This document shows, one piece after another, positions 16,245 through 53,700 of a stretch of 64,000 nucleotides of DNA (position 1 is the stretch's first letter; the number at the start of each line of letters is the position of its first letter). The stretch lies in NCBI GenBank assembly GCA_035771165.1, contig JAWNZC010000028.1, forward strand, positions 390,066 to 454,065, given 5' to 3'. The position numbers and the translations under genes are program-made. Under the pieces are notes generated by a model. The model was not told the origin of the DNA. It did no database searches and was given only the letters and a program-made list of their open reading frames with translations. This DNA is from Paragorgia papillata. Taxonomy: Eukaryota > Cnidaria > Anthozoa > Scleralcyonacea > Coralliidae.

Positions 16245-19069
16245 TTAATCCGAGCCACAATATCTCAAATGACAGTTAGGAACACTAGTAAGTTTGTAGA
16301 TATAAAAATATCCACAATTTAAAACCTCGATACTGGTTGACCAGTTGCAACAATTCCCGATCCAGTTGAAACACACTGTGCGAGTGACTTTGCCATCACT
16401 GACAGTTGGGTGATTGCCATTTATCCATCCAGGAGCATGGGTTCCACATCGCCGTTCAGGTACGCACGTCGTAGGCATCCTGGTCCCAGCCTTACCTCCA
16501 AACCTGTACCATCCAGGGGAAAGACCTCGGTCACACAAAAGAGTGCCAGAAGTATTCAGTTTAACGTTCCGATTAGCATCCTTAAGCCAGGAGTAGCTAA
16601 AACATTCTGGGTAAGGAGGTATACCTTAAAAAAAAGAGGTGCATTACAAATTGCAATGAAGAAAAACATATCTTCTGCAACTCGGTGCAGTGGCAGAGTT
16701 TTCTTAGACTGAAGATTAGGATCAAAAACCAAGACCAGCGGACAACTTGAAAAAGTATAGTATAAATCATATTGCGAAAAATAATGCCATCTTGAAAACC
16801 CAAGATATGAGTTAAAACAAGTGGAACTATTGTGAAATATTAGTATTTCGACTAGGGGTGTTGATGGCACAGTGGTTAGTGCACGTGCCTTTCACCTCTG
16901 CGACCTGGGTTCGATTCCTGCACGGTGCAGTTATCTGATTAAAAAAAAATTTCACTCTGGCCGCATGTGAGAAGAGTGCTTCCAGTTTGACTCTACCAAA
17001 CATCGCAGGTTTCCTCCGGGTACTCCGGTTTCCTCCTGTAGTAACACTGGACCAATGAGGGTGGGCTCTTACTGGACCTCTGAGGATAACAGTTTAGATA
17101 TAACTGATAGAGTTATCCAGTATGAATAAGGTTAGTTTTTAGTTTATTTCAAGTCATCTTTTCCACTTGTTTTAACTCATAACTTGAGTTTTCAGGATAG
17201 CATTAATTTTGGAATATGTTTTGGTGCTATAAATATTAGGATCAATCAATCCAAATATCTTACGTCGGTGTTGTTAATTACAACAACCTATTTTAAAATA
17301 TATAGAATATCCTATTTAGCAGTGGTAAATTTAAATTCTTGCGGATACGATATACCATGTTAAAAATTATCTATTTAGTTTGTCCTGTGATGCTCAGTAC
17401 ATTATCATGCAAAACTTGCAAACTGAAAGATTTGCTAAATAAGGCATTTGCTAATTTATGAACTAAATTTTCTAAATGAAGAATTTGCCAAATAAAGAAT
17501 TAAATTTTCTAAATATAGAACTTGCCAAATAAAGAATTTTTTAATGGTTTTATCGAATATTCTATTGTTATATAGTCTATAGACAAGTTGTAAAATAGAA
17601 TTTCTGTAAATGAATTATTGAAAATTGAGGATTAGTATTGGCAAAACACGCCCCAAAGCATATACAGGCAAAGAGAGTTGTAACTAAATGGAATTATATA
17701 ACACTAAACCAGAGAGGTAAATTTGAATGTTTTGGCCAACATGTTTTTCGGTATAAGTTCTTCGCAAGACGTCGAGATGATTTTTCCAGTGATGTTTCAG
17801 CATTTGTCGATATCAGCCTAATATTTATGATATTCCAAATTTCTACCCAGAGCCTTTTTTTACTAGAAGATTTCCTGGGTATGAGGTGGGCGATATTCTT
17901 CTTTCAAGATGTCATTTTTGGTTGCTGCATTTTGGATGTGCGAATGCCATCATGATGGTTAAAACATGACATAGAAGTAGGTAAAATTTGTTAGCTTATT
18001 GTCTATTTTTTTAAAAGTAGATAGATAATGGGTTTCTGTATTTGGAGTTCCTGACATAGAATTTTTGCCAAGTTGCTTGTATTTTTTACACATTTCTCAA
18101 GTTCCACATTCCAAGACATTCCAAGCAATCAAATTAAAAACATTACTTTGAACATGATATAAACGTTATACCAAACTACGTCGTTGGAGTTCTTTAGAAA
18201 TAGCATTGGCCCAGCCTGCACTTTAGAAACAATAAACAAATAATATATATATATATATAAGTGAGTTATGGTTCACGAAATGTTAGAGAGTGCTCAATAC
18301 CATATATAGATAGAGCAAAATACAAAGTATAAAGTATAGTTTTACCTTAAAGTCTTCGCTACCACAGGTTTCACCCTAAACGGGATCATCAGGCGACTGA
18401 AAAATATCGGTTAGTGGGCTGCTTAAATGCGTTAGTTGGGGCGTGGGTGTGGGCGTCGAAACGTCCGGCGGATTCATTTGGAGCGTGGGTGTGGGCGTCG
18501 AAACGATGTTTGGACGAAAAACTTTTCATCATGAAGGCAGACAAACAACTCTTACTAACCAAAAGATCAGAAATAGTTTCGACGCGTCGGCACAAAAAAA
18601 AATAAATAATTCGGATCAACAACCTAAACAATCAAAGGAATGCGCGCATCGTTTCGACGCCCACACCCACGCCCCAACTAACGCATTTAAGCAGCCCACT
18701 AACCGATATTTTTCAGTCGCCTGATGATCCCGTTTAGGGTGAAACCTCTGGTAGCGAAGACTTTAAGGTAAAACTATACTTTATACTTTGTATATATATA
18801 TATATATAAGTGAGTTTTGTTTCACGAATTGTTAGAGAGTGCTCAATATCATATATATACTTTGTATATAAGTGAGTTATGGTTCACGAAATGTTAGAGA
18901 GTGCTCAATACCATATATAGATAGAGCAAAATACAAAGTATAAAGTATAGTTTTACCTTAAAGTCTTCGCTACCAGAGGTTTCACCCTAAACGGGATGAT
19001 CCCGTTTAGGGTGAAACCTCTGGTAGCGAAGACTTTAAGGTAAAACTATACTTTATACTTTGTATACTT

Positions 19070-19111
<42 letters not shown>

Positions 19112-22100
19112 TCGATAAATAAAACTTACCCAAAGATTTGTTAAGATAATTTAACTGTTTCTTCAGTTGGCCAAGTTTTAGGTTTATCTAAATAACAATA
19201 ATCATAAAGATGTATGGATAATTTAATCCGTGTGCGAGTTTTAAAAATCCATGCATGTATAACAACAAATCATCTTGTGTGATCGTTGTTGTGACAAACG
19301 TTTCCAAACTTTTATCTATAAAAACTTAATTTTCTATTTTTTGTTATTATATACAGGCAATGTGGTTTTTTTTTGTTTTAAGATGTCCTGTTCTTTCGGG
19401 AAATATAAAGAAAATATGCCAAGTTAAAGGACTTTAAAAAGTTACGTGAAAGCCCAAAAACCACTAAAGGCAACGACCAAAGCTCAAAGACCAAAAACCA
19501 ACGACTAAAGCCCACAGCCTAAAAACCAAACATCAAATCTCCAAAGCCTACAGTTAGGATCAGATTCCCCCCTCAGGACCAGATGCCCCCGTTCGGAAAT
19601 GCTTCAAAAGACTTAGTAAAACATCACAGATTGAGTTATTTTACTAACACCAGATTATTTAACTCTGTCTTACGCTGGACAATCTTGCTCGTCAAGTGGA
19701 AACCTCGTAAAAAATCCAAATAAAAGGTTATAGACGGTGTTTTCATTGTAGTCCTTAAATATACCTTTTTCTCTTGGGCGATCACATTCCAGGTTTTGTT
19801 TGCCCTTATATAGAGTTCTTTACTGTCTTTGCGGTATACCAATAAACCATCAGCAGGTGGAACCTTTTTGGCAGTAATGCCATCCGGTACAACGACAGTC
19901 TGAGCAGGTTCGAATGTTTAAAATAAAACATAAAAATTTAGTAATTAGTCAAATTAATGGAGATATTAATATTTTGTAAGAATAAATATATTACTCTTGC
20001 ATGTATTTTGTCTATTTAACCATTTAATAAATTTTACAAACAATCCGAAATCATTTGCTGAAGTTTACGTTGCGAGTAAGTTTCCTAACTAAATGAGTGG
20101 TTACATTTAAAGTGCAAATGAAACGAAAATTAAGTCAGTCTTATTTGAAAGAACACTTAAAATTATAGAGTAACATCTCTTGCAGTTTTTCGTTTCCTCG
20201 CTTCGTTCTAAAGATATTTCAGTTTGTTTGATATGCAAATTAAACATTTTGAAGTCATGACGTGCATAATGAGTTATCGAAAAAAGTTATATAACTTTGC
20301 TATTTATTATCGAACCAAATTAATTCAAAGGAAGCATGTGGGCGTGTTTCTCCCAGAACACTAAACATGTAGATTTTCAGGTAATTATATTTGACAATAT
20401 CAAAGATATATAACTTTTTTCGATAACTCATTATGCACGTCATGACGTCAAAATGTTTAATTTGCATATCAAACAAACTGAAATATCTCAAGAACGAAGC
20501 AAGGAAACGAAAAACTGCAAAAGATGTTACTGTATCATTTTAAGTGTTCTTCAAATAAGACTGACTTAATTTTCGTTTCATAGGCACTTTAAAACAAGCC
20601 TTTTCTAGTACAAAATTTAAAGTAGCAAAGCTTGGTCAGACGGCAGAGTGAAGTTGTTTACGGTTTCTATTTTTGCGTTTTTATTGTTTTTGGTATGTGT
20701 ACAGCGCAGATCAACGTGGCCGTGTCAAAGGTGCTCCAGGCAGCCGCCATACGACACAGTTCAGACTACGGATTACAGCTAAGATGTTAGGTGCTGATTT
20801 TATGGAGGGAGGAAAACCGGAGAACCCGGCGAAAAACCCTCGAAGGACAGGAGAGATCAACTACAACTCTACTCACACGAGTTCCAAGCTCGACAACGGA
20901 GTCATTCCCAAGCGGTCACCCATCCAAGTACTAACCCCGTCTAACCGGGCTTAACTATTGGTGAGAGGCAGCGCGCTAACAGCACACACCACCCCTTGAT
21001 TCCTTATTAAAGGGAAGCTTATTTGGGAAGGCTGAAGTAATTAATTCTGTTGAAATTTCCTTTTCAAAATATCAGCTTTCTTTGTGGAATATCAATGGTT
21101 ATAGCCAAACTATCTAACATGTTCCTGGCAAACTTTTGAAGCGATTGGATGTTTTAGAGCAAATTTAGAGCCTTTCTGCTGAAACTGTCGGAGCTGGAGC
21201 TTTCTACTTTGTCTAATTTTACTATTGGTCAGAAGAGCAGCGTGTTCATAGATGTTCAATTGTTTATATCAGGCCTCTGAAAGGGGTTAAGCAACAAATA
21301 AACACAAAAAGATCAAAAGTAATCATATTTCAAATTTTCCTTCAAATTTCACCTTTAAAACGACCAATTTGAATGTTTTAAAAATAACAGTGTTATAAAC
21401 GCTGTTGTATACAAATTATATAGTAAGTTTAGCTATACTTACCCCATCATAAAAAAGAGCACGGTTCTTGCTACAGCGACCCTTAAATGAAAAACAAATA
21501 CCTTAGATATTTAAAACAGATTTTTTTTTATCCAAACCAAAACTTTAAAACTTAAATAAATGTGGAAATGAACGTTTTGTGGTTGAACTAGAAGTGAACC
21601 ACCTAATACGAGCAATTTCGCTAACCTTACTCGGTGTAGTACTGCCACCAACCAACTTGTACCATACCAACTTTCCATTATTCTTTGCAACTTCATACTC
21701 CATACATTTGTTCCAAGCTCTCTTAGGAAGGGTCGACCTCATCCAAAACCAAGTAAATACACTTCTTGTGATAGTTCCTCCATTTTGGGCTTGGCATTCG
21801 TCGGAGCAGTAATTTTGAGTACCACCTACAGGTCCATAACAACCACAACACTAAAAGACAATGAAATATGGATATAGCCATTACATCACCATTCGCCAAT
21901 TTTAGTAGTATATTATGTAAGAGAACTATAGTATATGACAGCTCACGTGTCCGTTATCGCATCCAACTGAGGCTGTTGAATCATGTTCAATCCCAGAAAT
22001 ATGTCCTTTTACGCTGTAACTATTAAAAAAAATAATTGCGTAATTACGGCAACATGACATGCAGACGTATTCACAATTTGCTTTACAGTTAAAATGCATG

Positions 22101-25100
22101 CATGCAGCCTTAATGAACACTATATACAGACGTTTCGTAAATGTTCGTCAAGATCAAATACTTAAAAAATGTTCCTAAGCCACAGGCAATGATCGAACCT
22201 AAAACTACCTTCTAGTGACCTGTTAGATATTTTAATCATTGAGTTTCTGAGGCTACGTCTACTAAACGTCTGTTACATTACAAGTAAACTCGCACATGTA
22301 AATACAGCACCGCAGATATACACGTAAGAACTGCATGCTTCTAAACTACATTTTATATGCAAACGCTTTCGCTTAAGCAGTATTACATATGACTATATAA
22401 ATTTGCAACTTGAGCCTCAGTAGCTCCTTGGTTGAAGCGCAAAACCGGCCATTAGAAGGTCGCAGGCTCAATGCCTGTCTGGAGCTCAGAAGTATTTTAT
22501 GAGTATATTTAATCTTAAAACAATGTCTACCAGCAAACGGTCTGTTACATTACACCGAACTCACACATGTATACATCACACACATGCACCACTCTTTAAC
22601 GTCAATATTATCATAAGAACTTTACATTAATAGCAATCTTAAGTTAAAATTTGAATTTTTGTTCTTTTCTAAAGACTATGTTCTCGAGCTGATAGCCGAA
22701 ATGGCTTCTTATTAAGAAAAATTAGTTTGTAATAAATTATTGCGCTGTAGAACAGTTGCAATTCATTATGGGATCAAAACAATCAAAACAACGGTAATTG
22801 CAAAATGTTATTTAATAAATAAAATGGACAAGCTTTTTCATTGAGCTCAAGGTATATCTTGATTATATGACATGAAATTAAATGCGTGCTTATTAAGCGC
22901 TTCAAAAGGTATTGGCAATAAAAATATTGTTTGCGGTATAAATTGACAGAACTCGTGAAACGGTAAAGGAAGATATTTTACAACTTTTTCGTATCTATAT
23001 AGATTATTTTTGTGGAAACACCAAGTAAAATATTTACTTGCTAAGTTTTTGGCCTGTTAACTCCGGCTTTATCAGAGCTCTGATGAAAGCCTGAGTCAAC
23101 AGGCCGAAAGCTTAGCAAATAAATATTTTACATGGTGTTTCCACAAAACGTATCTATATTACATTATCGCCATGAAAACTTTCAAAGAATTAATTTTTCG
23201 TATCTTTCTTAATTTTTGAGATGTTTCAATTTGTATGATATGTAAATGAGATGGTTTCTCTGGCTTCATAACTAACTACAGGGTACAGTATTTTCATACG
23301 AGAAGTTTTAATGTGCACAGTTTCAAGTGATTTTTTTTAACGAACTTGGAGATATAACTGATTTTGACATCTGGTGAAAATGTCATAGCCTTGCTATGAC
23401 GTCAGACACAATTTCATTTACATATAGAAAACAATTAAAATATTTTAAAAACATAGCGTAGAAAAAATAAATTTGACTCAGTTAAAACTATACAATGCAT
23501 AATTATAGACCCCATGATTAGGTTAACATGCTATCTAAGAATGATATCTAATCAGTAAATTAAAATTAAATATTCTACCTAAAAGCACCAGAGTAATCTT
23601 GTTGAAAGCAGGTATGGTGAAAGGCATATCCACAACGGCATGGCTGTTGCAGGCAAGAATTCATTCTTTTCTGTAAAAAAGATCAGGCATAATATGAAAG
23701 CAAACACCTTTAAGAAAAGCAAACATAAGAAACAAAAAACGTGCGAGATTGTAATGAATGAACGAACGAACGAACGAACGAACGATGAATGAACGAACGA
23801 ACGAACGAACGAACGAACGAACGAACGAACGAACGAACGAACGAACGAACGAACGAACGAACGAACGAACGAACGAATGAATAACTATTTAAGTGTCAAT
23901 GTATTTAGCACTATTACAACTAATTGGGGACAGTAATATTTGTAAACCCGCTGGAAATTGGGTACCCGTTTTTAAAATTACTCTCAAAAGCACATATCAC
24001 TAATAATATAACACGCACCCATCCAATTCCACTGCTTGGATGATGGCCAAATCCAAATTTTGAACATTGAAAGTTTGTATTGACAATACTTTCTGTCTGC
24101 AAATCTTTTACATATGCAATGTTTCCAATCCCTGCTGATGTTCGGCCACATCCTCCTTGGCCAATTACCAAAAGATTTTTTAAAGGACGTTTTGCTCTTA
24201 GTCTAAAAGACCTTAAATAAAGGGGGAAAATGTCGTTTTTGCGATTGCTGTTGTTTGTGTATTTTTTTCAAGATCGTATAGGGAACAAATCTTATTTGGA
24301 AAACAAACGTTCCTGGTGAACGAAGCTAGAATGTGTAGCTTAAATTGTTGCAATGCATGAAAGCAGCCTATGTCCCTTCCACTGTTTCTTAGTGACAGCA
24401 ATGGAGTATATAAATGTTGGAAATAAGGAAGTCAGGAAAAAAAAATATTAAACAAAGTAACAATAGCATAGGTTATAAATAACTTAATAATAGTTTTTAA
24501 AATATTAGTCACAAACCAATGAGCTTTTGTGTGTGAAAAGCTTTCTTTTGTTGCCATCTGTACCCTGAAGTCCAAAATTGGCGCATCGCCAAAAGCACTT
24601 GTCCAATGTGGAAAACCGAAAGGTCTAACTGTTTTATTGTTTGAAGGAACTGACCACATAGATGCGTTTCGTTTTCGTCCAATAAGCATGTATCCTCCTC
24701 CGTCGGTAGTCATGTCACACCACACCTTTAATGTGTATGTTTAAACAAAATGTTTTTGTAATTTAAAAACAAAACAAAAAACACTTTTTGTGCAGTTCTT
24801 CTAATGTAAACAAAAATTGGAAATATAAAAATTAGATGTGCATGGGGGTATTGTAATATTTTGTAGTTTTATAGAGTATAAAGACAAGAAAAATCAAAAT
24901 TTTTAATTAATGACGTTCTGGTTAATAAACATACTAAGATAATCCAAGTAACTAGAACAATTTTTCTTTTTTTCTAACAATGTTACTAACTTCAGAAAAA
25001 CACAATCGTATCATCCGCAATCTTGTTTCAATAATTTGCCTAATTAATTCAGAAGTCAGTGAATGCCTATTTATATTTCAAATTATGCAAAAAGGAAGCC

Positions 25101-41700: not shown

Positions 41701-44700
41701 AGATTTTTTTCATTTCAACACCTATTTTCTCAACTTTCAAGACATTTTTGTGGAGGCCCCCCTTAAACATTATTTTGTGGGGGGCCCTGGGCGACCGCCC
41801 AGTCCGCCCTGTCCTAAATCCGGCGCTGCACTGTTGCTAAGCAACAAAGCGACCAATCACATGCAAGTACTGCTGATCAAGTAACCAACCAAGTGCAAGT
41901 AATTTTGCCCTGTATATTCTTATATTTTAAGCTTGAGATGTAACAACAACAAGAGGAAAATATGCAGCAAGAGATTATTTAAACATGCATTTATATCTCA
42001 GAGCCAATTAAACTTTCAATATGTTATAGTTACATTTATCGGTATAATATTCCGAATTAGAAACAGGATCGGAAATATGTAACGTGCTACAAGTAGTATT
42101 TAGTTTTTGCTTTTAAGAAGTATTTCTTTTTTGCATTCTAATACTGGTTATTAAATTTTCACCCAAAATGAAAATAACAAACTGGAATGGTATTTTACCT
42201 TTGTGCTGACATTTTTTCCCGTAAAATCCTTCTTTGCATGAACACGCAAAACCAGGTTGTTCATTTGTCTTCATAATAACACCACTGTAACTACAAGTGG
42301 AACACCAAACCTGTAACAGAAGAACAGGGAATAAATCGGGCGAAGCACTGGTAACGTGTACTGTTAGTGCGCTACGTCTTGTCACTATACATAATTAAGA
42401 AGAGAAGTTAGGCCCAGTTATACGGGATATAGTTTCTTAAATAGAGTTCTCTCCACTTTGAATTTTTCCTTTACCGGGTTTTCTGGTCTTCCCCACTCCG
42501 CAAATTGAGCTTATGCTTATACGATGTTAGCTAGTATATTATCGAAGGCTTCTAACAAGTTAATTATCATAATAGAACCGCGACTTTGATTTGTGGTAAA
42601 ACGACGCAATGTTACCACAAATTCGCCTTTCTACTACAATTTGCGACCATATGCAGACATTCAAACTTACTCAAGTTTTAGAAAATTTGAAAGTACTTAT
42701 GTTCACATCAACTTTTGAATTCTTCCAACTTACTGGCTCTCATGTTTGCATCAGGTTATATATTATAGAACACGAGCGGCCATTTTCCATTTCTTAAAGA
42801 AACTACTAAAAACTACACTGAAGACTACATTTATGAGATAATAATCCTATAAAATAGATTATACTATAGATATACAGAAATTAGTAAGTTAAATCATAAA
42901 CAAAATAGAATAGAGAAAGGTATAGTAAGAAGAAGTAATAAGAAAGTATAAGGGTCTGTTCACATGAGACCGGGTTATCTTGGGGGGTAGGGATAACTCG
43001 GGGACTAGGGTCAAAGTTGACCATGTTTCACATGATAAAACGCAACTACCGATTTATCCCTGGCCTCCGAGATAACCCTAGCTTCATGTGAACACTTCAC
43101 CCCGAGTTATTCCGGGCAAAAGCATGCATAATTACGCATGCGTAATTATACAAAAGTTTGGAGGCGGGCTAACTCTGGGCCTAATCCCACGAATTATCTC
43201 GGTCTCGTGTGAACGATTTACATTTTTAAACTACGAAATGAACTAACATCGAGATATCTCGGGTGATAGGGATAACCCTTCCTCCCGAGGTACCTAATGC
43301 CTCATGTGAACAGGCTCTCTAAGAAATAGTGAGAAATACTGCGGTTTTGAGTTTGGAACGGATAAAATAAAGTTTTGCCGTTAAATTTAGTCGTTTGAAA
43401 CTTTTAGTCGTGACGTAATGCGAACGATGTTGTCAAGGCGTTGCCAAGGCGTTACATACTAACGCCAGTGCCTTGCCCTTGACAACGACTTGACAACATC
43501 GTTAGCATTACGTCACAACTACAATTTCAAACGACTAAACTTAACGGCAAAACGTTAGCCGTTCCAAACTCGAGTGGAAAGCGCAGTAGTAGGAACTAGA
43601 ATGCTCCTAAAAAATCTCTCACTATACTGACCTCCTGGTCAGGGACCGCGGAACCGGGGGGCTGGGGGGATCAGTCACTCTAGCACACGCAGCGGTCTGC
43701 ACTTGAACATTATATCAACAATACAAAGCAAGGGAGCATACCAGAAATGAGTACTGTTACTGTTGACAATATGTTGTGTTTGGCGTTTGTTCTGGTTTGC
43801 TCTTATATATAAATCTTAATCTATTAATGGAAACAAACAAACAAAGTGTTGTCTTTTGAGAGTTTTCTGACCTTCAGAATTCTGTAAATTCTTCCCCCAA
43901 AATGCAGGAAATGGCATTTCCTAGACTCTAGATTTAAAAAATTTCCAAAAATCGTTCCGCGGTCCCTCTTGGCTGCTTCCGTTCTTACTGATGGAAAATG
44001 TAAAAAATCACTTCTACGAGTGATTCTAGAGATGACGTCTCGATTAAAATTAAAATAATTGATTAAAAAACTGTGGCACTTTCCTAGCTAGACACTTTTT
44101 TACCAATTTTAAAAACATGACTATTTCTATACGGTCTTCTAGACATTCCAGGTTCAGTTGCTGAATGGCAAGGTCGCTAGAGTCTAATTTACAAATAATT
44201 TTTGCAGCACGCTTCTGCATGCGTTCTAATCTATCAACATCACTCTTATTACAACAGGTCCAGACACTGTCACAGTAGTCAAAAATTGGCCGAATTAGTG
44301 ATTTATAAAGATCATTTGCGACATGAGTCGTAAGATTCTTTCTCAGCCGACCTAGCATACCTATTCTCTGGCCACCTTTAGAGATAATATGTTTTACATG
44401 ATCTTTCCATGTAAGGCTGTCATCTAAGTATATCCCTAAATATTTAAATTTATAGACTCGTTTTAATTTATTTCTACCAACGAATAAAGTTACTTCGTTT
44501 ACTTTGGAAAGCCTAGCATCAGTTCCAAAAATTACAAACTCCGTCTTACTTTTGTTAATAAAAAGAAAGTTCCAAAAGGTCCAGTTGTTAACTTCATTTA
44601 GTTCATCATTAAATGTTTTTTCTATTTCTTTAATATACTTGTGTGCAACAAAGATGACAGCATCATCAGCATATAACAAAATGTTAAACTTGACTACGTT

Positions 44701-47700
44701 CATTCAAGTAGTCTTTAAACCAAGCAAGCTCTCTTCCCTCAATTCCATAAAGAACAGACATTTTTTCCAGAAGCAGTTCATGGTCCACAGTATCAAACGC
44801 CTTTCGTAGATCTGCAAAAACCGCACCTGTAAGCAAGCCTTGATCCATATTCCGACGATCCATATTCTGATGCGTCAATAGGCGAGTTTCAGGTTGTTGC
44901 GCGCTATTCATTTTTTCAAGAAAACTGGAAAGCTCCCCTCAAAGTAAACTAACGTACTATTTAAAATAAACAAAGTATAGATACAGTTTCTGGATATTTA
45001 ACACTGTTATTCTGCTGTTGGAGGCTCGCTAGCAAGTCTGTTTGCCATTGCTTACTTTGTAGAGAAGAGCCCGCCAATTCCTTTCCAAAACGATGCGCGC
45101 GCAACACCCTGAAACTCACCTATTCGAATATATTCATTTGGGTTCGATATCTCGTTCAAGCAATCTGATTACTATTGTGTTAAATTCTTTCTTCATTTTA
45201 ATTTCTTATTGTGCAACTAACGCTAACTAACACGTCAGTCTTGTTCCAATGGTTTAAACTATAAGTAAGTGAAAGGTGGCAAGCTGGTGTTCTTATTCTT
45301 AACGTATAAAATCAGCCTTGTCCCGCCGTTCTTATGCACGAGCGTATATATGATGAGACTGGTACCTAGGTTTGACTACGCCTATGCTAGCAAATATTAA
45401 AACAGCGAAGAGAAAGAGCCAGGGACTAGACTGGTATAAAATTATTATTATCTGATAACAAGCTAAAAGTGGGCTAGATTACTAAAATAGGCAGCAAAGA
45501 TACTCACTTCATCATCAGTTTCTGGCATTGTTTCCAAATAGAATGATTTTTCTCTTAAAATATATTCCCCAGGCAGTGCACAATTTTGGCTTTCCTTGTT
45601 TATTTCGCAAATACTCGACCCGTCTTCATTTTCAATGTAGTTTATGGACCTGCATTTTGGGAGGCGATTGACGCACTGGATTTGGCATTGAAACAATGAC
45701 ATATGAGACAAGCTGTCGATGACGTAACTTTGAAGATACCCTGAAATAAAAGGTAATCATAGTTTGAAAAATGAAAATAAATAATACTAAATATCCATCT
45801 ATTAAAACGTTGAAACATGTTAACATTTTTAATGCAGCAATTGTTATAAATTTTTGGCAAAGATTCTGAAAATTTGATAGACCATACTGTAATTCATACT
45901 AGAAGTTACTATCGCAAGGAAAGTGCTGCCTGAAGGACCAAATCGAGTCCTAATACGCTACTGAAAAATTCTGGATATACTCTGATTTTATACTTATAGT
46001 ATAGTACAGTAGGTCAACACCAGGGCCTGGCAGCCACGAACATGCAGGAGTGGTGCAGTGCAGTCATGTTGCTTCAAGGTTGCTAGTAGCAGTAACTTTC
46101 ACTTGCTAGGGTCAGAAGACCCACTTACTACATTTTTCTCAAATGACCTTCAGGCAGGAAAGATTAAACATTGAGAATTAAGATTTTCTGGTGCCGGCTA
46201 TAGTAATACTTATACATATTTTTAATATATCAAATCAACAAACAGCCAAGTACATATGCAGATAGATCAATGGGACAAAACAAATAGAAAATATATTTTT
46301 CTTTAAAAATAACAGGAACAATAACATGATTAATAATTTGCAAGATGATAGTGTTCTGAATGTTAGACTACACAGTCAGCAGTCCACATCTAGCAATTTG
46401 TATGTTTGGACAGTTGGTAAAGTTGTTCAACGACAACAATTCTTCACGTGGGATGAGACCACTAAGACATGGTCGATGATTGTCGAGTCCCATTTATCGA
46501 CTGAAATAGCTTGTGCTGTCAACAGCGCTGATAAACTCATGAAAGAGCACTGCTTTCCTCGAGAATCGCCAGTGCAACGTTCATGGCCTTGATGACTACT
46601 TCCCCGTGAAAGTAAAGACATATTTATGAATTGTTCTTACCGTGAATTTCCTGACAAAGACGACAAAGCTGAACTTCTTTGAAAATATCTTCGAAAACGT
46701 GAAGCGTGTCAGGCTATCAGTCGAACATGCGCACTAAGCCACTTTAGAAAATCTAGAGATTGCGCAATTGCCGACACATCCATCCATCCATCCTCCATCC
46801 ACATCCAAAAATCCAAAGAGATCGAGATATTGTCGACCATACATAGCTCGGCCAAAAGACTGGGCACGAGTGAACGCAAAGGCACGTCAAGATTAGTGTT
46901 GCTGCCCCCTGTCGGGGGGCAGCAATAAAATTGTTTTATCTTTCAATTACAGCATTTTAAGTATGTTTTTTCGTCCCTTTTTCTGCTATTACTGGACATC
47001 TCACAATTCAAATAAAGACAGTTAGTGCTAAAACTTCAGCCCCTTCTTACACATTTTTTACTACAATTCTTAACTTGGTAGCCATCTCGTTCCCATGCAA
47101 AGTCTTCATCTCCCTTATTCTATATTATATTTATTATATTTATATAGATATTTTTACTTACGCCCTTGTCCTTGGTTTTGAAAATAAGTTCCTTTTGAGG
47201 CTGACATACCAGTAACATCTCCTCCAACTGGTACATGAAATAAGAGCAAAGCCAGAGCCATAATTGCCATTTGTAAAGAGCTGGATAAATTAGACCAGTT
47301 TTGTGACGTGACGTTTGAAAGGCCATCGTTTGTAAGCAGATGTACCCTGGAAATATTTTTACAGGAGTTTGTTATCTGTTTTGATTATAATTATTAATAC
47401 AAAGAACGAAAATTAGTAATGATATCAACAACAACAATAACAGAGAACGCAATTGGTGAAACCTTACAGGTACAAAATATTCAGCACTAGTATACCAGCC
47501 AAGGACAGTGCACAGACAACATAAGTAACAGTTTCCATTGACCATTCCATTGCTGATTTTTTCTTTTCATTTTTCTAGGAAAACAGAAAGAAGTGAATCA
47601 CAGAATCACTTTAAATCTCCACACAGCAATATTTAATTATGAATAACGTACCATGTAAATAATGTTTATAAATGTACTAAAGTTGTTCTCAGATTATATC

Positions 47701-50700: not shown

Positions 50701-53700
50701 GAAATGCAAGGATAGAATAGGATAGAAGCAAAGGAAATTAAAGGGAAAGAAAGTAAAGGAAAGATATTGGATTAGATTATACAAATAGCGTGCACACTGC
50801 AATAAATTGCGATAATGCATAGAGGTATATTTCCAAATGCGTATTTGTATCTTGTTGATAGATAGCGTTATTAGCGGTTAAGAGTATAGATATGGGATAT
50901 GTCTTTACAATGATCACCCCTGATGAACGACACTAGATTGGAGTGTCGAAACGTTTGATCATGAACACTGACTTATTGACTTTTTAAGTTATTTTCAAGA
51001 CTTTTCATGCTATTGAGTAGCGTCAAAAAATGCCTAAAGAACATACTTACATTTTCTTTAAGAAGTTCCATTTTACAGCAAAGTTTGCTTGAACTATAAA
51101 ATAATAGAGCAAACGAATTATAGTTTAAATTAAAGCCCTTGCCAAATATATCCTTGTTAATCGCTAAACCCTAATCCAAGATCTAAATATAAAAAATCTT
51201 AATATAAACGGCTAAATACTCCAACTCAGAAAACAAAAAGGTAGGATAAACTGATTTGAACTCTAAACTCAATATTTTAAAATAATACAATCGGGGTAGG
51301 GATGTATATCAAGTAGATCTGTATGTTGTTTAAAGGTTTCTAATCAGAGATTGTAAGAAGCCCATCACTTCCGTAATAGCGTACAGTTACACAAGATGGC
51401 ATTGTTATTATTTTTAACACACTATCTTTAATCTGGGGAAGTATTCCTTTTGGGTTATCCAAATAGCAGCACCACTACTTTTTCTACAAGAACTAGAGGC
51501 ATGTATGTTCTTTTTCGTTCTATTATAAAATAGCTTTTTAAGAATAGACTTTATTAAGACTGTGTACACAATAATTTAGACTGCAATAGGTGATTTATAT
51601 TAGAAAGAAAACATGTTGAGTTAGTGAATAAGAACTTTTAAGTTCCACAATTAAGATTTTACGGTGCATGGTATGTATTTTTGATAGCTGTTGTGGTGAT
51701 GGTGGTGGTGGTCATAGTGCTGCTTCTGGTGGTGGTGGTGATGGTCTGATAGTGATCATGGTTGTTTGGCTGATCATGGTGTGGTTGTGGTAGTCGTGGT
51801 GGTATTCGTGATAGTGGTGTAGTCATGGTGGTCATGGTTGTGGTTGTCGTCGTGGTAGTGCTGGTCGTTGTGGTGATGGGGTGACCATTGTGGTGGTAGT
51901 GGTCATTTTCTTGGTGTTGGTCGTGGTGGTCATGGTGGTGGTGGTCATGGTTGTGGCTGCCTTCGTTCGGGTGGTGGTGGTAGTAGTGGTATTGTTAGTT
52001 GTAGTGGTGGTGATCATGGTCTCATGGTCGTGGTGGTCATCGTGGTGGTCGTCGTGGTTGTGATTGTGGTCGTGGTTGTTGTCGTGGTTGTTGGTGTGGT
52101 GGTGACCGTCGTGGTGGTGCTGATCGGGATGGTGCTGGTGGTCGTGGTGGTGCTGGTCGTGGTAGTGCTGGTTTTGTGGTGGTCGTCGTTGTAGTGGTTG
52201 TCATGGTAGCGGTGTTGGTCATGGGTGTGGTCGTAGTGGCCGTCGTGGAGATTGTCTTGGTAGAGGTGGTCGTGGTGGTAGTAATCGTGGTGGTGGTTGT
52301 GGTGGTGCTGGTTGTTGTGTCATTGGTGTGGTCGTAGTGGTGGTTGTCGAGATAGTTATGGTGGTGCTCGTCAAGGTGTTGATGACCGTGGTGGTCATGG
52401 TCGTGGTTGTAGTTGTTGTTGTTATGGTGGTGGTCGTGGTGGATGTTGTCGTGGTGGTGGTGGATGTGATCCTGGTACGTGGTGGTGCTCGTGGTTGTGG
52501 TCATGGGTGTAGTTGTAGTGGTGATGGTCGTGGTGATTGGGGTTGTCATTGTGGTGGTAGTGGTCGTTATCGTGGTGTTGGTCTTGTTGGTGTTGGTTGT
52601 CATGGTGGTGGTGGTCATGTTGGTGGTGATGGTGGTCATTATTGTGGTCGTCTTCGTTGTGGTAGTAGTTGTGGTAGTGTTAGTTGTAGCGATGGTGGTC
52701 ATGGGCTCATGGTCGTGGTGGTGGTAGTGGTGGTGGTGCTCGTTGTAGTTGTTGTAGTGGTAAACGTGATGGTTGTGGTGCGTGGTGATGGTCGTGGTTG
52801 TGGTCATGTGTGTGGTTGTAGTGGTCGTGGTGGTGGTGGTGGTGGTGATTGTCGTGGTGGTCATGATTGTGGTTTTTGTCGCGGTGGTAGTGGTGGTGAT
52901 CGTGGTGGTGATCGTGGTGATGGGGATGGTCATTGTGGTGTTAGTGGTCGTTGTCGTGGTGTTGATTGTGATGGTCGTGGTGGTGGTGGTGGTGGTCATG
53001 GTGGTAGTCATGGTGGTCATGGTGGTGGTGGTTGTCTTCGTTGTGGTGGTGGTTAGTGGTGGTAGTGTTAGTTGTAGTAGTTGTGGTCATGGTCTCATGG
53101 TGGTGGTGGTGATGGTAGTTGTGGTAGTCGTGGCGGTGGTGTTCCTGGTGGGGGTCATCGTCTTGGTGGTTGTAGTGGTGATCATCGTGGTGGTCGTGGT
53201 TGTAGTGGTGGTAATGGTCGTTGTCGTGGTGGTGGTGTTCGTCGTAGTGGTGGTGCTGGTCGTGGCGGTGCCAGGTCGGGGTGGTGCTGGTCGTGGTAGT
53301 GCTGTTTGTTGTGGTGGTCGTCGTTGTACTGGTTGCCATGATAGTGGTTTTGGTGGTAGTCGTCGTTGTAGTGGTGGTCGTGGTGGTTGTGGTCGTGGTG
53401 GAGATATTCTTATTAGTGACGGTGGTGGTAATCGTCGTCGTGGTGGCCATGTAGTGTTAGTTGTGACCCATGCGAGTACTAACCCATTTGACCGGGCTTA
53501 GCTTTAGTGATGAGAGGCTGTGCGCTAACGGCTTGTGCCACCAATGCCTCACTTAGAATCTAAATTAGCATATGATCATTATAAAACTGACCTTTTGCCG
53601 TAAGTACGTCATCTGTTGCAGAAGTGTTTTTGGCAACTGTGACTTGTAAAAGAACGAGATAGAAGAAAACAAAACATCCTTGGAACTTTAAGTTTGGGTA

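What the first reader, a model, noticed from the sequence alone, without database searches (positions are those of the whole stretch)
18321..18790. Foldback element carrying a complete-looking hammerhead fold in each arm
Seen: stem I, CUGAUGA, stem II, GAAA, a two-pair stem III and a UA cleavage site can all be placed at 18,717-18,757 (+), with its inverted twin at 18,356-18,396 (-). Known: hammerheads with minimal stem III occur in Penelope-like retroelements and related small retroelements. Inference: this element is a non-autonomous derivative of such a family, or a small ribozyme-bearing repeat not yet described in this host. The U-U pair at the base of stem II is unusual and should reduce activity, so it is either decayed or a variant.
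Basis: partly seen in the sequence, partly recalled or inferred. Interest (0 to 1): 0.75.

Follow-up and report, generated by a model that had tools for sequence, protein, structure and literature searches.

The report
Mirror-image hammerhead ribozymes in repeat element
A short mobile-looking repeat in a probably animal genome carries a complete hammerhead (self-cutting RNA) fold on each DNA strand, arranged like the inverted end-repeats of Penelope-type retroelements; the ribozyme looks genuine, but neither its cutting nor its family has been proven.

Summary
A complete type I hammerhead fold lies at 18717-18757 (+) and, one loop base different, at 18396-18356 (-). One of 600 shuffled windows contained such a fold. 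Rfam finds none, but at its cut-off it also called none of nine viral loci with complete hammerheads. A model of seven viral short-helix-III hammerheads ranks both copies first (37.4 bits); 65 decoy loci reach 24.7. That training set was found with patterns sharing letters with the site; a canonical model gives only 14.2 bits. The U.U pair at the base of stem II recurs in 5 of 91 complete viral hammerheads and in axolotl HHR_Amex2: a natural variant, not proof of decay. The hammerheads sit in ~178-nt arms facing head-to-head, within about three head-to-tail units, two shortened by internal deletions, with (TA)n at junctions. This matches described Penelope-like inverted pseudo-LTRs, but the element has no Penelope gene, and helix III has two pairs, as in animal retrozymes. 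The own-genome search did not complete, so copies and covariation are untested. Best reading: a non-autonomous Penelope-type or retrozyme-type hammerhead element.

The parts
18717..18757 (+). Type I hammerhead fold: stem I UCGC/GCGA, core CUGAUGA and GAAA, stem II UCCC-GUUUA-GGGU (basal U.U), helix III A-U + CC/GG with UCU loop, UA before the cleavage point
   Evidence: model R2 37.4 bits, E 4.1e-9 over the window; R3 32.4 bits; R1 14.2 bits over 3 kb with filters off, not reported over the window with filters on
18753..18754 (+). Predicted cleavage point (after A18753)
   Evidence: Inferred from canonical hammerhead numbering (recalled); not assayed
18356..18396 (-). Inverted twin hammerhead fold, helix III loop UGU; predicted cleavage after 18360
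   Evidence: R2 37.4 bits, E 4.4e-9
18243..18308 (+). Direct unit R1: (AT)n + AAGTGAGTTATGGTTCACGAAATGTTAGAGAGTGCTCAATACCATATATA
   Evidence: the repeat finder family D2
18303..18480 (-). Left arm of foldback 1
   Evidence: 178 nt, 92.7% to right arm
18481..18632 (.). Spacer between the arms; no Pfam match in the two open frames tested that run through it
18633..18808 (+). Right arm of foldback 1, ending in (TA)n
18792..18857 (+). Direct unit R2 (foldback missing; the next R follows 62 bp on)
18854..18919 (+). Direct unit R3
18914..18997 (-). Left arm of foldback 2 (18865-19001 matches 18254-18390 at 135 of 137)
18999..19085 (+). Right arm of foldback 2; 67 of 67 nt palindromic with the left arm around 18998
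18995..19025 (+). Truncated hammerhead (lacks stem I 5' strand and the first two core bases), expected inactive
   Evidence: R2 14.5 bits, model positions 8-39 only
19072..19109 (.). (TA)19 at the right edge
16625..19764 (-). Possible intron holding the whole array, between a collagen-trimerisation-like frame (19639-19917 -) and a D8C_UMOD frame (16248-16625 -)
   Evidence: Pfam: D8C 69.6 bits, above its cut-off; Collagen_trimer 16.4, below its cut-off of 23.8. Acceptor-like TTTTTTTTAAG at 16626-16625. The best-looking donor (AAG/GTATATT, 19764) is out of phase with it; in-phase GT sites exist at 19703 and 19673. Gene model uncertain

Best explanation
The locus is a small non-autonomous element of Penelope/retrozyme type. 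Its two ~178-nt arms are head-to-head copies of an end-repeat that contains a type I hammerhead with a two-pair helix III and a U.U-closed stem II. Shown: the folds, the inverted arms, direct R units, shortened units and (TA)n junctions. Inferred: RNA read outward from the spacer on either strand cuts itself just after 18753 (+) or 18360 (-), freeing a defined 5'-OH end for mobilisation by a Penelope-type reverse transcriptase in trans. Transcripts spanning both arms instead pair the two hammerhead regions and mask them. The inverted, palindromic units arose by self-primed or template-switching reverse transcription into AT-rich DNA, then by internal deletions.
For: Fold in both arms, 40 of 41 positions identical; shuffle control 1 of 600; R2 37.4 bits at both sites against 24.7 for the best of 65 viral loci that had been fetched for the same letters, and 41.7 and 35.1 bits for two short-helix-III hammerheads left out of training (L121, L141); R3, without the two nearest relatives, still 32.4 and 32.2 bits. 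Natural relatives with the same U.U and CC/GG: L138, L213, L024, L121. Architecture: compared with passages of PMC3846280 (181-218 bp pLTRs, inverted mostly head-to-head structures, palindromic junctions, a microhomology-mediated deletion) and PMC11167929 (tandem PLEs with a hammerhead, AT-rich target). A full unit folds at -320 kcal/mol as a circle against a mean of -123 for 30 shuffles, and at all 11 positions sampled 18717-18757 pairs in register with 18396-18356.
Against: The element has no Penelope RT or GIY-YIG gene (two frames through it, no Pfam match). In the window the one RT fragment found (44050-44703 -) looks by eye like a CR1/L2-type LINE; the window as a whole was not profile-scanned. 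No clear target-site duplication. Helix III is longer than in published Penelope hammerheads. R2's training set was gathered with patterns sharing letters with the site, and the canonical model R1 gives only 14.2 bits (E 0.004 in 3 kb) and did not report the site over 64 kb with filters on. R2 also gives many genuine canonical hammerheads less than the best decoy, so it recognises the short-helix-III form rather than hammerheads in general. Rfam has no hammerhead match. The RNA's free fold prefers another structure: -14.0 against -7.4 kcal/mol for the hammerhead on 76 nt, and is no better than shuffles. No copy outside this locus was found in the window or by exact or near-exact patterns, in collections of viruses and prokaryotes; the own-genome search did not complete.
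Confidence: 0.55

Rival explanations
1. A non-LTR retrozyme-like tandem repeat: unit R-arm-spacer-arm repeated head to tail, excised by hammerheads one unit apart and circularised, with the inversion a secondary event.
For: Direct units at spacing 549 and 62, low GC (0.417), helix III of two pairs as in invertebrate hammerheads. Retrozymes occur in corals, jellyfish and anemones as short tandem repeats (PMC7229834, passages).
Against: The unit is longer than the ~170-400 nt described for animal retrozyme RNAs, though the same paper allows circles of 150 to over 1000 nt. Only one intact hammerhead per strand survives: the second + copy lacks stem I's 5' strand and two core bases, so no circle could be cut from this locus as it stands.
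Confidence: 0.2
2. A foldback or MITE-type DNA transposon with TA target sites whose inverted repeats happen to include an old hammerhead.
For: Long inverted repeats bounded by TA-rich sequence; another palindromic MITE-like element (22997-23159) lies in the same window.
Against: R units flank in direct orientation and are duplicated together with the left arm, so they appear to be part of the unit. Hammerheads are known from retroelements rather than DNA transposons (recalled).
Confidence: 0.12
3. A real hammerhead sequence that is now a dead relic: the arms sequester it and it has no current role.
For: In-register pairing of the two hammerhead regions in a fold of -320 kcal/mol; the copies in the second foldback are truncated.
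Against: Both intact copies keep every core and stem base, although near identity of the arms makes this weak.
Confidence: 0.08
4. Chance resemblance to a hammerhead.
For: Rfam silent; the free fold of the local RNA is no better than shuffles; the scan rules were post hoc; R1 weak.
Against: 1 of 600 shuffled windows; 65 decoy loci with the same letters score at least 12.7 bits lower with R2.
Confidence: 0.03

Closest known systems
Penelope-like elements and Terminons (hammerheads in pseudo-LTRs; PMC3846280, PMC11167929, PMC7761336, passages only)
   Same: ~180-220 bp repeats in direct and inverted, mostly head-to-head arrangement; palindromic junctions; partial tandems; AT-rich sites; type I hammerhead within the repeat
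   Different: No ORF here; helix III has two pairs where published ones usually lack it; U.U at the base of stem II; no clear target-site duplication seen
Animal non-LTR retrozymes (PMC7229834, passages only)
   Same: Non-coding low-GC tandem units with a type I hammerhead and a two-pair helix III
   Different: One hammerhead on each strand in inverted arms; unit of 549 bp; triloop instead of tetraloop; no second intact direct copy
Axolotl HHR_Amex2 (PMC7229834, passages only)
   Same: U-U mismatch at the base of stem II, two-pair helix III; 22% self-cleavage reported during transcription
   Different: Host, repeat and arrangement; tetraloop on helix III
Two-polarity hammerhead RNAs: carnation CarSV retroviroid (PMC11722881, passage) and HDV-like RNAs of toad and termite (PMC7761336, PMC7936874, passages)
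   Same: Hammerheads on both polarities; CarSV also has a DNA form of head-to-tail multimers; HDV-like RNAs fold as rods
   Different: CarSV is 275 nt, from a plant, its DNA next to pararetrovirus sequence; the toad and termite ones are type III hammerheads in ~1.5-1.7 kb RNAs with an ORF. No RNA is known for the present locus
Viral-contig hammerheads with short helix III (L138, L213, L024, L121; found here)
   Same: CUGAUGA-U...U-GAAACC-nnnn-GG-UW; L138 and L213 also share UCGC/GCGA and UCCC/GGGU
   Different: IMG/VR contigs (ORFs viewed for L138 and L024 only); tetraloop; not in an inverted pair. Taken as convergence or shared constraint, not homology

Membership tests
Hammerhead ribozyme (type I) | Conserved core CUGANGA ... 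GAAA with U16.1-H17 | tested here: met
   (CUGAUGA, GAAA, UA)
Hammerhead ribozyme (type I) | Three helices around the core, stem I open | tested here: met
   Stem I 4 bp, stem II 3 bp plus U.U, helix III 2 bp plus A-U
Hammerhead ribozyme (type I) | Rfam hammerhead gathering score | tested here: not met
   No match; but a canonical viral hammerhead scores 21.9 against a cut-off of 34, and of 10 viral loci scanned, 9 with complete folds by my scan, none was called, so this test is insensitive
Hammerhead ribozyme (type I) | Covariation of stems across copies | tested here: inconclusive
   The two intact window copies differ at one loop base only
Hammerhead ribozyme (type I) | Loop 1-loop 2 tertiary contacts | not tested
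   No loop-loop model was built; with the hammerhead pairs enforced, no helix formed that would continue the 4-bp stem I
Hammerhead ribozyme (type I) | Self-cleavage | not testable with these tools
   Needs a bench assay
Penelope-like element | RT + GIY-YIG ORF in the element | tested here: not met
   No Pfam match in two frames through the element. Of the 6 window ORFs of 150 aa or more, four are low-complexity, one is the RVT_1 fragment and one has no match above cut-off. Shorter or broken frames elsewhere were mostly not scanned, so remote remains could be missed
Penelope-like element | Direct/inverted pLTRs of about 200 bp with palindromic junctions | tested here: met
   against PMC3846280 passages; resemblance of layout, not of sequence
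Penelope-like element | Minimal hammerhead lacking helix III (usual, not universal) | tested here: not met
   Two-pair helix III
Penelope-like element | Target-site duplication | tested here: inconclusive
   No clear shared flank word; (TA)n obscures it
Non-LTR retrozyme | Tandem units each with an intact hammerhead in the same direction | tested here: not met
   Second direct copy truncated
Non-LTR retrozyme | Circular RNA product | not testable with these tools
   No RNA data

The most novel reading that the evidence does not exclude
A genome-encoded 'two-polarity retrozyme': a ~550-nt tandem unit that folds into a viroid- or delta-like rod with one hammerhead on each polarity lying opposite each other, so that RNAs of both strands could be cut to unit length and circularised, allowing symmetric RNA-to-RNA copying in an animal. 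The plant retroviroid CarSV is the nearest precedent.
Probability: 0.08. Interest if true: 0.75.

Novelty: new variant of a known kind. Interest (0 to 1): 0.42.

Why it matters
If the fold cuts, this is a compact natural case of a hammerhead with a U.U-closed stem II and a two-pair helix III placed on both strands of an inverted repeat, with features of both Penelope pseudo-LTRs and animal retrozymes. It would help to test what hammerheads do in Penelope mobilisation (their activity in vivo and role are called 'still a mystery' in a passage of PMC7761336) and whether inverted arms switch the ribozyme off. The control result is useful in itself: at its cut-off Rfam called none of nine viral loci with complete hammerhead folds, so a negative Rfam scan should not be read as absence.

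Tried and rejected
Rfam at gathering over the window and at E up to 10 around the site: no hammerhead. Its miRNA-precursor and other matches there follow the hairpin and the TA repeats, lie below their cut-offs (for example MIR6217 72 against 110 bits) and were rejected.

Searches for relatives by pattern: viral contigs 0 for two strings; genome contigs 0 with a looser pattern and 0 with the U.U pattern; full text of the paper library 0 for six strings. The two contig collections are of viruses and prokaryotes, so this is not evidence of rarity.

R1, a model of 16 canonical viral hammerheads, did not report the site over 64 kb with filters on, where its best match was another place at 12.1 bits; with filters off over 3 kb it ranked both copies first at 14.3 and 14.2 bits. 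A mixed 42-row alignment was dropped because MAFFT misaligned helix III, and an 8-row set because L141 shifted it. The decoy set was 65 of the 77 loci L147-L223: I left out 11 that repeat others of the set and L213, a training member; one decoy, L165, holds two real canonical hammerheads.

Local RNA folding: the hammerhead is not the minimum-energy fold. A match with CTGATGA...GAAA at 23080 lies inside a palindromic repeat and has no U-H after helix III: rejected as a hammerhead. A scan for CCTGANGAAGG...CCGAAACGTT in viral contigs found 0. I first took the array to lie in a clear intron; the phase check weakened this.

Full report
What is there. The window looks eukaryotic and probably animal: GC 0.372, a fragment of a LINE-like reverse transcriptase (RVT_1, 27.1 bits, below its cut-off of 29.6; 61 related proteins) and a D8C/uromodulin-type frame on the minus strand (D8C_UMOD, 2.6e-19; PDB matches GP2 and uromodulin). 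At 18717-18757 (+) the sequence reads UCGC-CUGAUGA-UCCC GUUUA GGGU-GAAA-CC UCU GG-UA-GCGA, and 18396-18356 (-) reads the same with UGU in the last loop. Stem I has four pairs, stem II three pairs above a basal U.U, and helix III two pairs plus the A-U of the core.

Is it more than chance? Among 600 dinucleotide-preserving shuffles of the 64 kb, 1 held such a fold by the strict scan, and 2 when the variable core base was freed. Rfam gives no hammerhead at its gathering scores over the window or at E up to 10 around the site. As a control I scanned 10 viral loci that hold the hammerhead pattern, 9 of them with complete folds by my scan: none had a hammerhead at gathering, and L002, a textbook case, scored 21.9 bits where the cut-off is 34. 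Rfam silence is therefore weak evidence.

Models. R1, from 16 canonical viral hammerheads with longer helix III, puts both copies first in a 3-kb search with filters off (14.3 and 14.2 bits, E 0.004) but does not report them over 64 kb with filters on. R2, from seven viral hammerheads with a two-pair helix III (one of them, L136, with a weak stem II), gives 37.4 bits and E of about 4e-9 for both; the next matches are the truncated copy (14.5) and a full-length match of 11.1 bits. R2's members were found with patterns that share letters with the site, so part of this score is built in. Two checks reduce that worry. In 65 other viral loci fetched for the same letters the best match was 24.7 bits, while two short-helix-III hammerheads left out of training scored 41.7 and 35.1 (L121, L141). 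R3, without the two nearest relatives (L138, L213), still gave 32.4 and 32.2 bits. In 30 loci chosen for complete folds R2's 56 matches ran from 9.9 to 41.7 bits, so many genuine canonical hammerheads fall below the best decoy: R2 speaks for the short form, not for hammerheads in general.

The U.U pair. Among 91 structurally complete viral hammerheads, identical cores counted once, the basal pair was G-C in 83, U.U in 5, U.C in 2 and G.U in 1; of the 8 with a two-pair helix III, 4 had U.U, one of which (L213) had been fetched with a pattern that demands it. Two pairs of evidently related viral hammerheads differ just there: L139 G-C against L136 U.U (L136 has only two stem II pairs and fails my scan), and L145 G.U against L122 U.U. 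The axolotl HHR_Amex2 is described with a U-U mismatch at the base of helix II (PMC7229834, passage) and 22% self-cleavage. So the U.U is a recurrent natural state; whether it slows this copy is open.

Anatomy of the locus. The arms are 178 nt (92.7%), with a 144-nt core holding one mismatch, and both hammerheads read outward from the spacer: head-to-head. A ~62-bp unit R occurs three times in direct orientation, 549 and 62 bp apart. R3 and the left arm after it match R1 and its left arm at 135 of 137 positions, and the second foldback is a perfect 67-nt palindrome about 18998. The simplest reading, which is inference, is three head-to-tail units R-arm-spacer-arm-(TA)n of 549, 62 and about 230 bp: in the second the foldback is deleted, in the third the apex, with GAT shared at the joint (by eye). 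The truncated hammerheads there lack stem I's 5' strand and two core bases. GC is 0.417 in the full unit against 0.317 and 0.324 in the flanks.

Setting. The array lies between a collagen-trimerisation-like frame (19639-19917 -; 16.4 bits, below its cut-off) and the D8C frame (16248-16625 -). A pyrimidine-rich AAG acceptor precedes the D8C frame. The best-looking donor, at 19764, is out of phase with it, though in-phase GT sites exist at 19703 and 19673. If the two frames are one gene, the minus-strand hammerhead lies in sense orientation in its intron; this is not established.

How it would work. Folded as a circle, the 549-nt unit has -320 kcal/mol against a mean of -123 (s.d. 7) for 30 shuffles, and the plus hammerhead pairs in register with the left-arm region at all 11 positions sampled. 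A transcript that holds both arms should therefore mask the ribozyme; one that starts in the spacer would expose it. Even alone, the 76-nt local RNA prefers another fold (-14.0 against -7.4 kcal/mol), a point against fast cleavage. For comparison, the hammerhead of an Anolis Penelope element showed no cleavage in vitro without its protein (PMC11167929, passage).

What it is closest to. [quoted passage not shown] That matches this architecture well. Against filing it there: no RT or GIY-YIG gene in the element, no clear target-site duplication, and a two-pair helix III where reviews describe Penelope hammerheads as usually lacking it (PMC6155905, PMC7761336, passages). Against filing it as a retrozyme: inverted hammerheads, a long unit, and no second intact direct copy. 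I therefore call it a hammerhead element of Penelope/retrozyme type, family undecided. In my paper searches I met no description of an inverted hammerhead pair without an ORF in an animal genome, but I saw passages of seven papers only (PMC11167929, PMC7229834, PMC6155905, PMC7936874, PMC7761336, PMC3846280, PMC11722881), the rest as listings, and the key paper on Penelope hammerheads (PMC4209133) is not held.

Limits. The search of the window's own genome was asked 15 times and never answered, so copy number, covariation and full-length relatives are unknown.

Noticed in passing
window 54348 and 53901 (- strand): Two copies of CTGAAGA-AGGGG-loop-CCCC-GAAACGTTGTGAATTGAAGATTA, a hammerhead-like motif without helix III, differing in one base of the stem II loop; resembles the minimal Penelope-type motif (recalled). 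R2 scored the 54348 copy 11.1 bits only and did not list the other.
   Followed up: partly
window 50920 (+ strand): CTGATGA-AC-GACACT...AGTGTC-GAAACGTT, another possible minimal hammerhead; flanking ATGATCA/TGATCAT could pair but not next to the core. Not listed by R2.
   Followed up: partly
window 22997-23159: Palindromic MITE-like element (164 aligned nt, 87.8%) with a CTGATGA...GAAA that does not complete a hammerhead.
   Followed up: partly
window 18724-18771 (+): The ATG inside the hammerhead core opens a 15-codon frame whose stop lies inside a donor-like AAG/GTAAAA; frames in both arms end at TGA in the core. Possibly a trace of a Penelope start region; not significant alone.
   Followed up: no
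window 16248-24740 (-): Frames with Fibrinogen_C-like (below cut-off), Collagen_trimer-like (below cut-off) and D8C_UMOD (above cut-off) matches, in that order on the minus strand.
   Followed up: partly
L007, L017, L059, L032: Viral contigs with 5, 5, 5 and 4 complete hammerheads within the stretch held, all in one orientation in each.
   Followed up: no
L136/L139 and L122/L145: Related viral hammerheads that exchange G-C or G.U for U.U at the base of stem II.
   Followed up: partly
L057:2363-2437 (+): Rfam Twister-P5 match (46.1 bits, cut-off 37.6) in a viral contig that also holds a U.U hammerhead-like core without a complete fold.
   Followed up: no
window 52037-53501: Long low-complexity stretch giving open frames on both strands.
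   Followed up: no
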